NCBI GenBank assembly: GCA_023662905.1
Contig: JAMPIJ010000009.1
Coordinates: forward strand, 1 to 43,846
Source: Fusobacterium sp.
Lineage (GTDB): Bacteria; Cyanobacteriota; Vampirovibrionia; Gastranaerophilales; Gastranaerophilaceae
Direction of reading: 5' to 3'
DNA: 43,846 nucleotides
Part shown: positions 15,500-43,846 of the stretch, piece by piece
Position numbering within the stretch: the first letter of the stretch is position 1
How the letters are laid out: each line of letters starts with the position of its first letter
Made by a program: the position numbers and the translations under genes
Notes under the pieces: generated by a model
The model's input: only the letters and a program-made list of their open reading frames with translations
Told to the model about the DNA's origin: nothing
Database searches by the model: none

Positions 15500-15775
15500 A
15501 TGGGTATAATTAAAAATATTCGTATCAATAAAAACTTAAAAATGGCTATCGGACAACTCGAAGGCATTTTGAAAATGATTTTGACAAAACGCGAAAGCGT
15601 CGAAGTAAGCGACCAGCTTAACGCTGTAATGGCTTTAATCAAAGGCTGCCAGAACGACATCATCAAAGATGAACTTACAGAACAAATCGAGGACATCATC
15701 GTCACTCCTGACGCAGTCGACAGAAAAGCTAAAGTCGACAAACTCGTGATATTTATTGATAGAATGATTCGCTAA
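15500..15775 (+). CDS. CsoR/FrmR-like small helical protein lacking metal ligands
   Basis: A 91-residue all-helical protein. Residues 12-62 follow the CsoR/RcnR/FrmR pattern (IGQLEGILKMI...DQLNAVMALI), including the GQLxGI start of helix 1 and the Q-x2-A segment. Lined up by eye with CsoR, the three copper ligands Cys, His and Cys are replaced by Ser33, Glu58 and Gln62. One cysteine (C50) is present at a different place. It may be a sensor of something else, or no longer a sensor. It overlaps the rlmD start by one base (TAATG). Confidence 0.6.
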   Translation: MGIIKNIRINKNLKMAIGQLEGILKMILTKRESVEVSDQLNAVMALIKGCQNDIIKDELTEQIEDIIVTPDAVDRKAKVDKLVIFIDRMIR

Positions 15776-17130
15776 TGATTGAGAACGAATTAGTTACATT
15801 AAAAATAGAAAACTTTTCAAACCTTGGTTTCGGCATAGCACGCGAGGACGGAAAAGTCGTATTTGTTTCTAACGCTTGCCCTGGGGATGAGGTTGAGGCA
15901 AAAGTAGATAAAGTTTGCAAAAACTTCACCTACGCATCGACAACAAAAGTTCTAACCCCGTCAACGCATAGAACAGAACCGATTTGCCCGCTTCAAAAAG
16001 TTTGCGGCGCGTGTCAGTTAGGGTTCATCGACTATGCGTATCAACTTGAACTCAAACGCCAGAACGTAGAAGATGCTATGCGCAAAATCGGCGGACTTGA
16101 TGTTGAAGTTAATGCACCAATCGCAAGCCCTAACACAACCGGTTACAGACACAAAATTCAATATCCGGTCGGCGAAACAAAAAATTCTAAACGAATTCTT
16201 GCCGGCTACTACAAACAAAAATCACACGAAATCGTAAACATCAAATATTGCCCTGTTCAACCGGCAATCTGCGACGAAATTATAGAATTTATTCGCAACA
16301 AAGCGTTTGATTTCGGAATTTCAGGCTTCAACGAGAAAAAACACACAGGCGACCTGCGCCACATAGTTCTGCGCGCGTCTGCCGACAACGGCAAAATCCT
16401 CGTTACCCTCGTTATCAACGCAACACAATCTTTCCCGCGCCTGAGAGATTTTGCACAATGCATTTTTGATGAATTTGAAGCAGTCACAGGCGTATGCGCA
16501 AGCTTCAACCCGAAAAAAACTAACGTAATCCTCGGGTCTAAATCCGAATGTCTTTGCGGAAAAGATTATATAATAGAGCGAATTTTAGGCAAAACATTCA
16601 AAATCGGCGCGAATACTTTCTTCCAAATCAATCCTAAAAGTGCCGAAAACATTTTCGCCTACGTAAAAAAACATATTTCCGAAAACTTTGACCGTCCAAC
16701 GGTTTTAGACGCGTATTCGGGTGTAAGCGCGTTTGGCATAACCGTCAGTGATGTGGCAAAAGAAGTCGTTTGTGTGGAAGAAAACACTGAATCCTGCAAC
16801 CTTGCACACGAAATAGCACGCGAAAACAAAGTTAAAAACATCGAAATAAACAACATGGACGCCGGCAAATTCTTTGCACGCGAAAAACGTAAATTCGACG
16901 TCGTAATCCTTGACCCGCCACGCAGCGGTTGCACACAAGAATCACTCGACAACGCACTAAAAGTCTGCGGCAAACAAATAATTTACGTAAGCTGCAACCC
17001 TGCAACCTTAGCGCGTGACCTGAAATATTTAACAGAAAAAGGCGCCAAAATCTCAGGCAATATTCAGCCGTTCGACATGTTCTGCCACACGTACCACATC
17101 GAAAACGTCGCGATTATTGATATAGACTGA
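15775..17130 (+). CDS. rlmD: 23S rRNA uracil-C5 methyltransferase (RlmD/RumA type)
   Basis: A 451-residue SAM-dependent enzyme that methylates a uridine of 23S rRNA. An N-terminal TRAM domain (about 1-58) binds RNA. The 4Fe-4S cluster cysteines are C71, C77, C80 and C159. The C-terminal methyltransferase shows VLDAYSGVSAFGI, the LDPPRSGC motif, and the catalytic cysteine in IYVSCNPATLARDL. The full cluster set favours RlmD-type over tRNA-specific TrmA. It is read in an operon with the CsoR-like gene. Confidence 0.92.
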   Translation: MIENELVTLKIENFSNLGFGIAREDGKVVFVSNACPGDEVEAKVDKVCKNFTYASTTKVLTPSTHRTEPICPLQKVCGACQLGFIDYAYQLELKRQNVEDAMRKIGGLDVEVNAPIASPNTTGYRHKIQYPVGETKNSKRILAGYYKQKSHEIVNIKYCPVQPAICDEIIEFIRNKAFDFGISGFNEKKHTGDLRHIVLRASADNGKILVTLVINATQSFPRLRDFAQCIFDEFEAVTGVCASFNPKKTNVILGSKSECLCGKDYIIERILGKTFKIGANTFFQINPKSAENIFAYVKKHISENFDRPTVLDAYSGVSAFGITVSDVAKEVVCVEENTESCNLAHEIARENKVKNIEINNMDAGKFFAREKRKFDVVILDPPRSGCTQESLDNALKVCGKQIIYVSCNPATLARDLKYLTEKGAKISGNIQPFDMFCHTYHIENVAIIDID

Positions 17131-17136
17131 TGCTTT

Positions 17137-18456
17137 CTAGTTTTTGGCTTTCTTCTGAGCCTTTTGCCAAGCTTTAGCTTCACGTGCGACTGGAACAGCT
17201 TGGTTATAACCCAAATTTTCTCTAAGCAGAATATCAGGTGCAGTTAAAAATTTCTGACTTGGTCTACGCAAATAACCTTCTGCAGGTTTCAACAACTGAG
17301 TTATATTTGTCCATAACGTATATCTATTATGTTCATTACGTAATGCTTTATTTCCTTCTGGAACTAATTTATCCCAAAACGCATACAATTGAGGGTAAAT
17401 TCCTTCAGGTTTATTACAAAGACATTTATAACGGCTATCCTCAAGCAGTTCTTTGAACTCTTCTGAAGGTCTATACATCATTTGCGCTTCTACAACCCTA
17501 CCATTCGGCAACTCATACAAAAGATGAAGAGCCGGATAACCATTTTTCATAGGTTGGAATTTAACTTGCTCACGATTAGTCACATCTAAACCCGCAGTAT
17601 CCGCTAAACTGTTAATATCTTTTTTAGAAGCAAGCATAAAATATTCAGGATCAGCCATAGCTTTTAACTGTCTATCACTGAACTGCCAGCCGAAATCTTT
17701 TTTCCAATTTCTTAAAACATAGTACGGAATAGAATCAGCAGACTCAATATCAGGATAGTAAACTTCTATTTGTTTAACTTTGAGCTTACCATCTTTTATC
17801 ATTTGCCCTACAATGCGTAGCACTTTAGCAACAGCTTTTTTATCACGATCTCTGAAAACATACCTTTCACCAGCGACATCAGTAACCTCTTCCATAGCTT
17901 GTTCTTTATTTCTAATAGAGAAAGTTTCTCCTCTTTTAGCCGCTTCTTCAGATTTTTTTGCCGCAGTAACTTCTAACTTTTTGCGAACTTTTGAAAAATC
18001 CTTTACACGATAACGAATTTCTTGAATAGGTCTATCTTGTCCGCAAACTACTGAAACTTCACGTCTAAAATATTGTTGGTCAAGGTTTTTCATATATTCC
18101 AGTGATACAGTTGCATCACGCACCATAGCCATTGCGATAGAAGACGGCGTTTCATAAAAAAGTTCCTCTGGAGCAACTTTGTCTGCACGTAATCCGTTAA
18201 CAGTTTGCGTAACAACTTCTGCGGCTTTCTTTGCAGCCTTACTCCTACTGCCAAAAGAAACGGTATCGCGCGCGAGCGGCGCAAGGTTTGACGGCTGATT
18301 ATTCTGGAGTGCTGGGAACGCAAAAATCTTAGCGCCTAGTGCATTGAAACCATTGAGAGGGCGCTCCCCCCCCCCCCCGGCTGTATTAAGACGTGACGAT
18401 GTGTTTTGTTGTGAATTTTTTAACTGCGTAACATTTGGGGTAATTGTAAGATTCAT
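17137..18456 (-). CDS. divergent RelA/SpoT-like nucleotidyltransferase-fold protein with a G13 tract
   Basis: A 439-residue protein. Residues about 148-330 follow the RelA/SpoT synthetase domain: RYRVKDFSKVRKKL (substrate-binding start), TDVAGERYVFRDRD at 192-205 (like D-L-A-G-x-R), KNGYPALH at 304-311 (G-loop with stacking Tyr), and VVEAQ at 321-325 (catalytic E-x-Q). No HD hydrolase, TGS or ACT domain is present. The first 70 residues are low-complexity with an SFG motif at 67-69. Thirteen G in a row encode Gly27-30, a strong candidate for slippage. ATG 18456 is chosen over GTG 18465 because AAGGAG lies 10 bases before it. Confidence 0.65.
   Translation of the reverse strand: MNLTITPNVTQLKNSQQNTSSRLNTAGGGGERPLNGFNALGAKIFAFPALQNNQPSNLAPLARDTVSFGSRSKAAKKAAEVVTQTVNGLRADKVAPEELFYETPSSIAMAMVRDATVSLEYMKNLDQQYFRREVSVVCGQDRPIQEIRYRVKDFSKVRKKLEVTAAKKSEEAAKRGETFSIRNKEQAMEEVTDVAGERYVFRDRDKKAVAKVLRIVGQMIKDGKLKVKQIEVYYPDIESADSIPYYVLRNWKKDFGWQFSDRQLKAMADPEYFMLASKKDINSLADTAGLDVTNREQVKFQPMKNGYPALHLLYELPNGRVVEAQMMYRPSEEFKELLEDSRYKCLCNKPEGIYPQLYAFWDKLVPEGNKALRNEHNRYTLWTNITQLLKPAEGYLRRPSQKFLTAPDILLRENLGYNQAVPVAREAKAWQKAQKKAKN
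18366..18378 (-). repeat. G13 homopolymer in the RelA/SpoT-like gene
   Basis: Thirteen C on the plus strand, read as G13, begin 78 bases after the start codon. The tract is in frame at 13. A gain or loss of one G would end translation after a short peptide. Such a tract is not expected by chance in AT-rich DNA. Confidence 0.9.
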
Positions 18457-18565
18457 ATTGCACACACTCCTTGAAAAATTTTAGTATACAAAGTATAAGA
18501 CAAAAAATTCTAAAAAGTGCTATTTTTGTCGTAGTTATTAATAAATTGTTACAATGCTTACAAAC

Positions 18566-18594: not shown

Positions 18595-18624
18595 GGTTAA
18601 GTCTTAATGAATAAGGAGAAAATT

Positions 18625-19425
18625 ATGGGATTAATGACAGGTAAAAAAGGGCTTATTTTTGGTGTTTCAAACACTCACGGTATCGCTTACGGTATCGCTA
18701 AACAATTGTTTGAAGAAGGTGCTGAAATAGCTTTTACATACGCTAACGAAATAATGGAAAAACGCGTTAGACCAATCGCAGAAGAAATGAACGCAAAAAT
18801 CATTCTTGAATGCGACGTAACAAAAGAAGAAGACATCAAAGCTGTAGTTGCTGAATGCGAAAAAGTTTACGGAAAATTAGACTTCGTAGTTCACGCAGTA
18901 GCGTTCGCAGCAAGAGAAGATTTACAAGGAAGATTTATTGATACATCACATGCCGGCTGGGATTTAGCAATGGGTATCAGCGCATACTCACTAGTTTCAA
19001 TCTGCCGTAACGTAGAACCTATTATGAACGAAGGCGGTTCAATCTTCGCTCTTACATATCTTGGTTCAGAATATGTTGTAGCAAACTACAACGTAATGGG
19101 CGTTGCAAAAGCAGCATTAGAATCTTCAATGAGATACTTAGCGGCTGACCTTGGTAAAAAAGGTGTAAGAGTAAACTGTATCTCTGCAGGTGCAGTAAAA
19201 ACATTAGCAGCAAGCGGCATTGCAGGCTTCGGCAAAATGTTGAAAGCAGCGACAGCAAAAGCACCTTTAGGCAGAAACGTTTCATTGGAAGATGTAGGTC
19301 GTGCAGGTCTTTACCTTGCATCAGATCTTTCAAGCGGCACAACTGGCCAAATTCTTTATGTAGACTGCGGTTGCCACGCTGTTTACGCTTCATCAGAAGA
19401 GATGGACTTGTTAACACGAGAATAA
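18625..19425 (+). CDS. fabI: enoyl-[acyl-carrier-protein] reductase FabI
   Basis: A 266-residue NADH-dependent short-chain reductase that makes the last step of each fatty-acid elongation cycle. The cofactor site reads GLIFGVSNTHGIAYGIA at the N-terminus. The catalytic pair is Tyr155 and Lys162 (Y-x6-K in YNVMGVAK), as in E. coli FabI. The C-terminus GTTGQILYVDCGCHAVYA matches the family. The ATG at 18625 is preferred over 18607 because the AAGGAG site lies between the two. It is monocistronic here, with its own promoter and a hairpin after it. Confidence 0.94.
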   Translation: MGLMTGKKGLIFGVSNTHGIAYGIAKQLFEEGAEIAFTYANEIMEKRVRPIAEEMNAKIILECDVTKEEDIKAVVAECEKVYGKLDFVVHAVAFAAREDLQGRFIDTSHAGWDLAMGISAYSLVSICRNVEPIMNEGGSIFALTYLGSEYVVANYNVMGVAKAALESSMRYLAADLGKKGVRVNCISAGAVKTLAASGIAGFGKMLKAATAKAPLGRNVSLEDVGRAGLYLASDLSSGTTGQILYVDCGCHAVYASSEEMDLLTRE

Positions 19426-27080: not shown

Positions 27081-27148
27081 GTGAGCCGGTGCTCACGGTA
27101 TAGCACACGTGAGTGTGACAAACAGGTACTTGTGAGCAAATGCTCACA
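27081..27148. repeat. two GTGAGC/GCTCAC hairpins
   Basis: GTGAGC-CGGT-GCTCAC (27081-27096) and TGTGAGC-AAAT-GCTCACA (27131-27148) share the same arms. The second spans the stop codon of the minus-strand gene ending at 27144 and could act in its 3' end processing or stability. Confidence 0.6.
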
Positions 27149-28157
27149 CCTCAGCTTTTGCTAAGTCATCAAACAACTTCTTCACTTCCGCATCTTGTAA
27201 TGCCGCAGCCGTTTTAAATTTATCTTTTGCAAATTTTACCATGCACCCCTCACCGGAAAATTCAAAACCTGCACGCTCGCCGGCAAGCAAGGCTTCTTGC
27301 TCAATTCCTGAGGCAAAATATTTAGCATAATCAATTTTTCCATCACACTCAAAATAGTCTATATTTTGAAAATCTTCAAAATAACGTTCCGCTTTTTGGG
27401 CTTCCTTTGTTCCTGACTTTATAATTCCCATAGAATCTACAACCTTTTGCCTAAACGCTGTTACTTGCTGCCTGAATTCTGGCACAAGTGCTTCAATTTC
27501 CTTATCCAAAGCTGCCATATCATTATTTTCAAAATATTTTTGATAACGCGCCATCGTATCATAGACCACTTGATTCTGAATAATACCCTGCTCCACCATT
27601 TCATCCAAACTCATATTAGCAAGTAAATGTTTAACAGTAGCTTTTTCCGTATTAACCAACCCATTAACATGAATATCTACAACTTTTTCACCTAGAGTTT
27701 CATGTCTAAAAACATCCATATTCTGTTTAAAATGCTGCAGTTCATGGCGTAAACCACTAAAAATCTCAGCTTGTGACATTGATGATAAATCCTGATTTCG
27801 GGTTATTGCATTATAATTAAACATATACGCCATCGGAGCTGTTGTCGATTGCGCCTGCGGTATTAATGACGGCTTAATTTCATCAGGAATCCCCATTTTT
27901 TTAGCCAATAATTCGTATGCACCATTTACAAAATCCTCACCTTGTAATTTTGTGAGAGCCTTAATCTCCTCATGGGTTGTACCCAGTTTGAATTTCATGG
28001 AATAGACATATCCCTGAAAACAATTCTTATCTAATTGAGTAAGCCCTTTTGAAACTTTAGTATCGGGTAAAACCTGTGTTAAACGGTTGAGAAACTCCCC
28101 CCCCCCCCCGAACGACGGTACATTTTTCTGTATTTGAGTATTATTTCTTATTTGCAT
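27144..28157 (-). CDS. HEXXH zinc-protease-like protein with a G13 tract
   Basis: A 337-residue protein. HELQH at 138-142 in FSGLRHELQHFKQ is the zinc-binding and catalytic motif of many metallopeptidases, and EQEALLAGERAG at about 286-297 could supply the third ligand. No known peptidase family is recognised otherwise; the rest is helical. No signal peptide is seen, but the N-terminus carries the SFG motif (VPSFGGGGEF). Thirteen G encode Gly17-20 directly after that motif. ATG 28157 is chosen because AAGGAG stands 6 bases before it; the longer frame to 28190 has no ribosome site. Confidence 0.6.
   Translation of the reverse strand: MQIRNNTQIQKNVPSFGGGGEFLNRLTQVLPDTKVSKGLTQLDKNCFQGYVYSMKFKLGTTHEEIKALTKLQGEDFVNGAYELLAKKMGIPDEIKPSLIPQAQSTTAPMAYMFNYNAITRNQDLSSMSQAEIFSGLRHELQHFKQNMDVFRHETLGEKVVDIHVNGLVNTEKATVKHLLANMSLDEMVEQGIIQNQVVYDTMARYQKYFENNDMAALDKEIEALVPEFRQQVTAFRQKVVDSMGIIKSGTKEAQKAERYFEDFQNIDYFECDGKIDYAKYFASGIEQEALLAGERAGFEFSGEGCMVKFAKDKFKTAAALQDAEVKKLFDDLAKAEV
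28097..28109 (-). repeat. G13 homopolymer in the HEXXH-protein gene
   Basis: Thirteen C on the plus strand (G13 in the coding strand) begin 48 bases after the start codon. Length and following codon (GAG) are the same as in the tract at 18366-18378, though the surrounding sequence differs. Confidence 0.9.
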
Positions 28158-43698: not shown

Positions 43699-43846
43699 TC
43701 TAGAATTTGAAGCTCTATAAATACATTTTCATAAACCAATATAAAGCTTTATATTTCACTGAGTTTGGCATTTTCAACCCACATTTATTTTTATAATGTT
43801 TGATGAAGTTTTATACAGCACAATAGCCCCCCCCCCCCCCCCCCCC
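43699..43846. other. downstream spacer ending in C20
   Basis: No gene is supported in these 148 bases; every minus-strand frame leading out of the tract closes within about 60 bases. A TATAAT lies at 43792-43797. The last 20 bases (43827-43846) are all C, which is where the assembly stops. Confidence 0.7.

What the first reader, a model, noticed from the sequence alone, without database searches (positions are those of the whole stretch)
18366..18378. G13 tract at the start of a RelA/SpoT-like gene: candidate phase-variable alarmone-type enzyme
Thirteen G in the coding strand lie 26 codons after the start, in frame only when the tract has 13 (mod 3) units. Long G tracts in the 5' part of a gene are the classic mark of slipped-strand ON/OFF switching. 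The encoded protein keeps the D-x-A-G-x-R, NGY-x2-LH and E-x-Q features of (p)ppGpp-type synthetases but has no hydrolase domain. A growth-control nucleotide synthetase under stochastic control would be a new arrangement as far as I know.
Basis: partly seen in the sequence, partly recalled or inferred. Interest (0 to 1): 0.72.

Follow-up and report, generated by a model that had tools for sequence, protein, structure and literature searches.

The report
Phase-variable alarmone-type synthetase gene
A gut relative of cyanobacteria carries a run of 13 G near the start of a gene for a stress-signal-type (alarmone synthetase-like) enzyme; the run would switch the gene on or off when copied imprecisely, and it is one of about 112 such G runs in this genome, most of them in surface-pilin genes.

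Summary
In detail: G13 on the minus strand (18366-18378), 26 codons after the ATG of a 439-aa gene. Computed products are full length only with G10, G13 or G16; other lengths stop at about 40 aa. The protein has the synthetase fold of small alarmone synthetases with catalytic-type residues invariant and no hydrolase; the genome has a separate full-length RelA/SpoT. Three of six orthologues in the genus (Ca. Gastranaerophilus) have the tract at the same place (G13, G14, one with an assembly gap inside it); three lack it. It is no isolated curiosity: the genome has about 112 tracts of 9 or more G (1.4 expected), roughly 60-70 in prepilin genes, with ON and OFF frames side by side, and a genus-specific motif (CTNANCNG) follows many tracts. 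'Phase-variable alarmone-type synthetase' is the best reading, by frame logic and genome-wide analogy. Slippage in this gene, the enzyme's product, and whether it acts inside or outside the cell are not shown; no within-species length data could be obtained. I found no earlier report of a phase-variable alarmone synthetase, or of G-tract phase variation in this lineage, in the open-access library.

The parts
18366..18378 (-). G13 tract, codons 27-31 of the gene; ON at G10/G13/G16
17137..18456 (-). SAS-like (RelA/SpoT synthetase-type) gene, 439 aa from the conserved ATG
   Evidence: orthologues in 5 of 6 other genomes of the genus
18467..18472 (-). AAGGAG ribosome-binding-like site; GGAGTGTGT is conserved upstream of the ATG in orthologues
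18253..18285 (-). LAPLARDTVSF N-terminal tag (residues 58-68), kept in distant homologues; function unknown
17407..18153 (-). synthetase core (about residues 102-350)
17977..18009 (-). R150-x-K152 ... K160, ATP-site-type motif
17863..17880 (-). D193VAGER198, catalytic Asp-type motif
17524..17541 (-). G306YPALH311, acceptor-site-type motif
17482..17490 (-). E323AQ325, catalytic Glu-type motif; the usual IRT that follows is replaced by MMY/IMG
15775..17130 (+). conserved convergent neighbour, tRNA/rRNA (uracil-5)-methyltransferase type
18607..19425 (+). conserved divergent neighbour, enoyl-ACP reductase (FabI type)
28097..28109 (-). second G13 tract, in frame, followed by TCTCAACCG; orthologues carry G7, G10 at a contig end, and a gapped tract there
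27144..28157 (-). gene of unknown function with the second G13 tract
43827..43846 (-). G20 tract at the contig end (assembly break at a tract)

Best explanation
The gene is a contingency locus: slipped-strand mispairing changes the number of G in the tract, so that a cell makes either the full 439-aa protein (G13, or plus/minus 3) or a stub of about 40 aa. The protein is a small alarmone synthetase-like pyrophosphokinase (pyrophosphate from ATP to the 3'-OH of a nucleotide, or possibly of tRNA) with a long disordered N-terminus and no hydrolase; (p)ppGpp, if that is the product, could be removed by the separate full-length RelA/SpoT. Subpopulations of a clone would thereby carry, or lack, an extra source of this signal or toxin. 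Shown here: tract, frame, fold, conserved residues, kept gene order, tract variability between species, genome-wide ON and OFF tract genes. Inferred: slippage in this gene, enzymatic activity, product, place of action.
For: Frame logic. Orthologues at the same chromosomal place: G13, G14, G10-NN-G13, and three without the insert. 112 G tracts of 9 or more in the genome; 116 of 146 genomes of the family have a tract of 10 or more G. In the prepilin set with the standard ATG spacing 22 are in frame (21 G12, 1 G15) and 25 out of frame (G9, G10, G11, G13, G16); LicD, glycosyltransferase, HTH-repeat and other genes are split into two frames exactly at the tract. Between two related species 4 of 10 orthologous tracts with flanks alike on both sides differ by one G. 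Fold: RelP Z 12.6, RelQ 11.7, CapRel 10.4, exported Streptomyces SAS 10.0; family homologues pass the Pfam RelA_SpoT cut-off; the profile matches solved SAS sequences at E 7.5e-10 with R-x-K, D, GY..H and E-x-Q aligned.
Against: No within-species length variants were available. The window protein alone scores 19.4 bits against Pfam RelA_SpoT, below the cut-off of 27. Model confidence is modest (mean pLDDT 58, most of the core about 65-90). The IRT after E-x-Q is not kept. Assembled homopolymer lengths can be wrong by one. Both alleles of this gene whose tract length is known read in frame, so no OFF allele of this gene has been seen.
Confidence: 0.62

Rival explanations
1. Phase-variable, but the enzyme is an exported or delivered effector (like exported alarmone synthetases or Tas1), so switching hedges an antagonistic or host-directed activity and not the cell's own growth control.
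For: Disordered, tagged N-terminus (LxPLxxDTVSF) shared with otherwise unrelated tract genes of the genome, one with a lipobox-like stretch after the tag; no antitoxin or immunity gene beside it; fold close to an exported Streptomyces SAS and to Tas1; PMC12691689 shows that such enzymes exist and occur as isolated loci. Other tract genes are mostly surface-related.
Against: No Sec-type hydrophobic stretch is visible in the first 100 residues; no secretion domain was found by Pfam; the function of the tag is unknown; the gene sits in a stable place between two housekeeping genes.
Confidence: 0.3
2. The tract is only a poly-glycine linker or a neutral expansion and is not switched.
For: Reads in frame where its length is known; lies in a disordered region; absent in three species of the genus.
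Against: The four glycines of the tract are all GGG, while the other glycines of the gene use GGT 8, GGA 5, GGC 3 and GGG 1; tracts occur also as C runs, between genes and out of frame; 112 tracts against 1.4 expected.
Confidence: 0.12
3. The tract is part of a wider DNA element (G tract plus CTNANCNG) that serves recombination, gene conversion or spread of 5' ends among genes; slippage is secondary.
For: CTNANCNG within 8 nt 3' of the G strand at 41 of 64 pilin and 9 of 19 other tracts, none on the 5' side, background 0.007, also when the gene runs the other way; almost wholly confined to this genus.
Against: The tract of this gene has only a degenerate form (CCTCTCAATGG); its orthologue in L125 has CTTATCCG directly after the tract. 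No recombination product was looked for.
Confidence: 0.15
4. Transcriptional or ribosomal slippage on the G run gives some full-length protein from every allele, so the tract tunes the level and does not switch.
For: Long homopolymers can cause slippage (general knowledge, not tested here).
Against: Nothing here tests it; the two other frames end 13-15 codons after the start of the tract.
Confidence: 0.1

Closest known systems
Small alarmone synthetases RelP/SAS2 and RelQ/SAS1
   Same: synthetase-only fold; R-x-K, D, GY..H and E-x-Q residues aligned
   Different: about 100-residue disordered, tagged N-terminus; C-terminal extension; IRT after E-x-Q replaced; G tract
toxSAS and CapRel
   Same: synthetase domain with similar fold (CapRel Z 10.4)
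   Different: no antitoxin gene beside it; no antitoxin domain that Pfam detects
Exported alarmone synthetases (SaEAS, VpEAS; PMC12691689)
   Same: isolated locus without immunity gene; fold match 8vx3 Z 10.0
   Different: no visible Sec signal peptide; export not tested
Poly-G/C contingency loci of Campylobacter (PMC6321876), Helicobacter (PMC2823697) and Neisseria (PMC5084427)
   Same: G/C tracts within genes, many near the 5' end, ON and OFF states in one genome, surface genes among the targets
   Different: 112 tracts of 9 or more G here (median 20 phase-variable tracts per C. jejuni genome in PMC6321876; 115 phase-variable genes are claimed for N. meningitidis in PMC5084427); dominated by one prepilin family; followed by a genus-specific motif; includes an alarmone-type synthetase

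Membership tests
Small alarmone synthetase (RSH synthetase-only) | synthetase (nucleotidyltransferase-type) fold | tested here: met
   the top matches are SAS structures, Z up to 12.6
Small alarmone synthetase (RSH synthetase-only) | Pfam RelA_SpoT above cut-off | tested here: inconclusive
   window protein 19.4 bits against 27; four homologues 29.0-36.4 bits
Small alarmone synthetase (RSH synthetase-only) | catalytic-type residues | tested here: met
   R150, K152, K160, D193, R198, Y307, H311, E323, Q325 invariant in 11 sequences and aligned with solved SAS
Small alarmone synthetase (RSH synthetase-only) | no HD hydrolase, TGS or ACT domain | tested here: met
   contrast with the full-length RSH
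Small alarmone synthetase (RSH synthetase-only) | (p)ppGpp or (p)ppApp synthesis | not testable with these tools
   needs an enzyme assay
toxSAS toxin-antitoxin | adjacent antitoxin gene | tested here: not met
   neighbours are a methyltransferase gene and FabI, kept across the genus
Exported alarmone synthetase | signal peptide or secretion domain | tested here: inconclusive
   no Pfam secretion domain, no hydrophobic N-terminal stretch by eye; no signal-peptide program was run
SSR-mediated phase-variable (contingency) locus | long repeat in the 5' part of the gene with frame-dependent product | tested here: met
SSR-mediated phase-variable (contingency) locus | length differs between relatives at the same site | tested here: met
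   G13, G14, gapped tract, absent
SSR-mediated phase-variable (contingency) locus | length variants within one population, measured switching | not testable with these tools
   no reads and one genome per species

The most novel reading that the evidence does not exclude
Ca. Gastranaerophilus, an uncultured gut lineage beside the Cyanobacteria, has a very large G-tract phasome built on a DNA element (G tract plus CTNANCNG) that switches some 60-70 prepilins, surface-sugar genes and an alarmone-type synthetase, so that surface identity and a growth or toxic signal vary by chance in single cells.
Probability: 0.35. Interest if true: 0.85.

Novelty: new variant of a known kind. Interest (0 to 1): 0.62.

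Why it matters
Alarmone synthetases are normally tied to nutrient or stress cues; placing one under stochastic genetic control would give clonal subpopulations with preset growth or antagonism states. The setting is an uncultured animal-gut lineage whose surface biology is almost unknown, and the tract census makes the idea testable from existing metagenome reads.

Tried and rejected
Tract variants in IMG/VR: none. Sequencing artefact: rejected, since the tract is at the same place in independent assemblies with conserved flanks. Toxin-antitoxin pair: no partner gene. Tract pilins as targets of the genome's diversity-generating retroelement: no DNA match between that locus and the tract loci. 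Single-sequence PDB search: no relative; only the profile found them. Literature: no paper on Gastranaerophilales phase variation, and the one Melainabacteria hit is about flagellins; searches for phase variation with alarmones gave no paper on a switched synthetase in the titles and abstracts listed. The library lacks most subscription journals.

Full report
Observation. The window has C13 on the + strand at 18366-18378, which is G13 in the minus-strand gene 17137-18456. The conserved start is the ATG at 18456, with AAGGAG upstream; the tract follows after 26 codons. Among G10-G17 only G10, G13 and G16 give a full-length product; the others end after 39-43 aa, and the next in-frame start codon lies at codon 109, without a clear ribosome-binding-like site. 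The run is far beyond chance.

Protein. Pfam RelA_SpoT matches the window protein only weakly (19.4 bits, cut-off 27), but homologues from the same family of bacteria pass the cut-off at 29.0-36.4 bits. The model has modest confidence (mean pLDDT 58); its core nevertheless matches small alarmone synthetases above all else: RelP Z 12.6, RelQ 11.7, CapRel 10.4, exported Streptomyces SAS 10.0, Tas1 7.3. Across 11 homologues R150, K152, K160, D193, R198, G306, Y307, H311, E323 and Q325 are invariant and align with solved SAS sequences. The IRT after E-x-Q is not kept. There is no HD domain. The genome has one full-length RSH with HD, RelA_SpoT, TGS and ACT domains on another contig. Relatives with the domain are found in most genera of the family and in some other families of the order; some matches lie in very long open frames of about 1,700-3,300 aa.

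Context and relatives. The named relatives are Ca. Gastranaerophilus phascolarctosicola and other Gastranaerophilales or Melainabacteria MAGs. The gene lies between the methyltransferase and FabI genes in the relatives read; in G003 a tract-bearing prepilin stands on the FabI side within the stretch read. Of six orthologues in the genus, three have the tract at the same place (window G13; L125/G006 G14, in frame; L126/G001 G10-NN-G13, an assembly gap inside the tract) and three lack the insert. The seventh genome, G002, has neither the gene nor any tract of 10 or more G.

Genome-wide setting. The genome has 112 runs of 9 or more G against about 1.4 expected. Of the 80 sites with enough flank, 60 precede a prepilin-type signal (mostly FTMAEILLSLTIIG). 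In the set with the standard ATG spacing, 22 are in frame (21 with G12, one with G15) and 25 are not (G9, G10, G11, G13, G16). Other tract genes include LicD, glycosyltransferase family 2, LysM and HTH-repeat proteins; several are split into two reading frames exactly at the tract. Between G003 and G004, 10 tracts could be paired by flanks on both sides; 4 differ by one G, though one-base assembly error cannot be excluded. In the family 116 of 146 genomes have at least one tract of 10 or more G.

A motif. CTNANCNG lies within 8 nt 3' of the G strand at 41 of 64 pilin and 9 of 19 other tracts, never on the 5' side, against a background of 0.7%; one of the 9 is probably a pilin cut by a contig end. 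It follows the G strand even where the gene runs the other way (L049, L051). It is almost confined to this genus. Its meaning is unknown.

Reading. The most likely mechanism is translational ON/OFF switching, by slipped-strand mispairing, of a small alarmone synthetase-like enzyme. Frame logic, tract variability between species and the genome-wide pattern support it; within-population variation, activity and place of action are not shown. Export is a serious alternative for the role: exported alarmone synthetases exist as isolated loci without immunity genes (PMC12691689), as here, but no signal peptide is visible. The kind (a poly-G contingency locus) is well known; the target enzyme, the lineage and the scale are new as far as the open-access library shows.

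Noticed in passing
own genome, e.g. L048:4855-5850, L071:15807-16802, L064:1139-2131: About 60-70 prepilin-like genes with a G9-G16 tract about 10 codons after the ATG and before FTMAEILLSLTIIGVVAA; roughly half in frame. C-termini vary strongly (..W.S....VRCVKR). Four whole proteins gave no Pfam match.
   Followed up: partly
3' side of G tracts in G000, G003, G005: Genus-specific motif CTNANCNG next to G tracts, independent of gene orientation.
   Followed up: partly
window 28097-28109: Second G13 tract, in frame, in a gene of unknown function; orthologues have G7, G10 at a contig end and a gapped tract at the same place.
   Followed up: partly
L043:916-2077 and L066:664-1627: LicD and glycosyltransferase 2 genes split into two frames at C15 and G11 tracts.
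   Followed up: partly
L136 (G000:C22 about 112.2-114 kb): Diversity-generating-retroelement-like locus: reverse transcriptase, an Avd-like ORF and an Asn-rich template-like segment; its target was not found.
   Followed up: partly
window 18253-18285; L038, L049: N-terminal tag DTVSF: 4 DNA-pattern hits in the genome, 3 of them in genes with a G or C tract just upstream of the tag.
   Followed up: partly
L137:4992-11588, L138:4933-10176, L139:3448-11919: Proteins of about 1,750-2,820 aa in other genera with a RelA-like domain, one with an HD domain.
   Followed up: no
window 43827-43846 and many contig ends of the genome: Contigs end at G tracts, which suggests that tracts break the assembly.
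   Followed up: no
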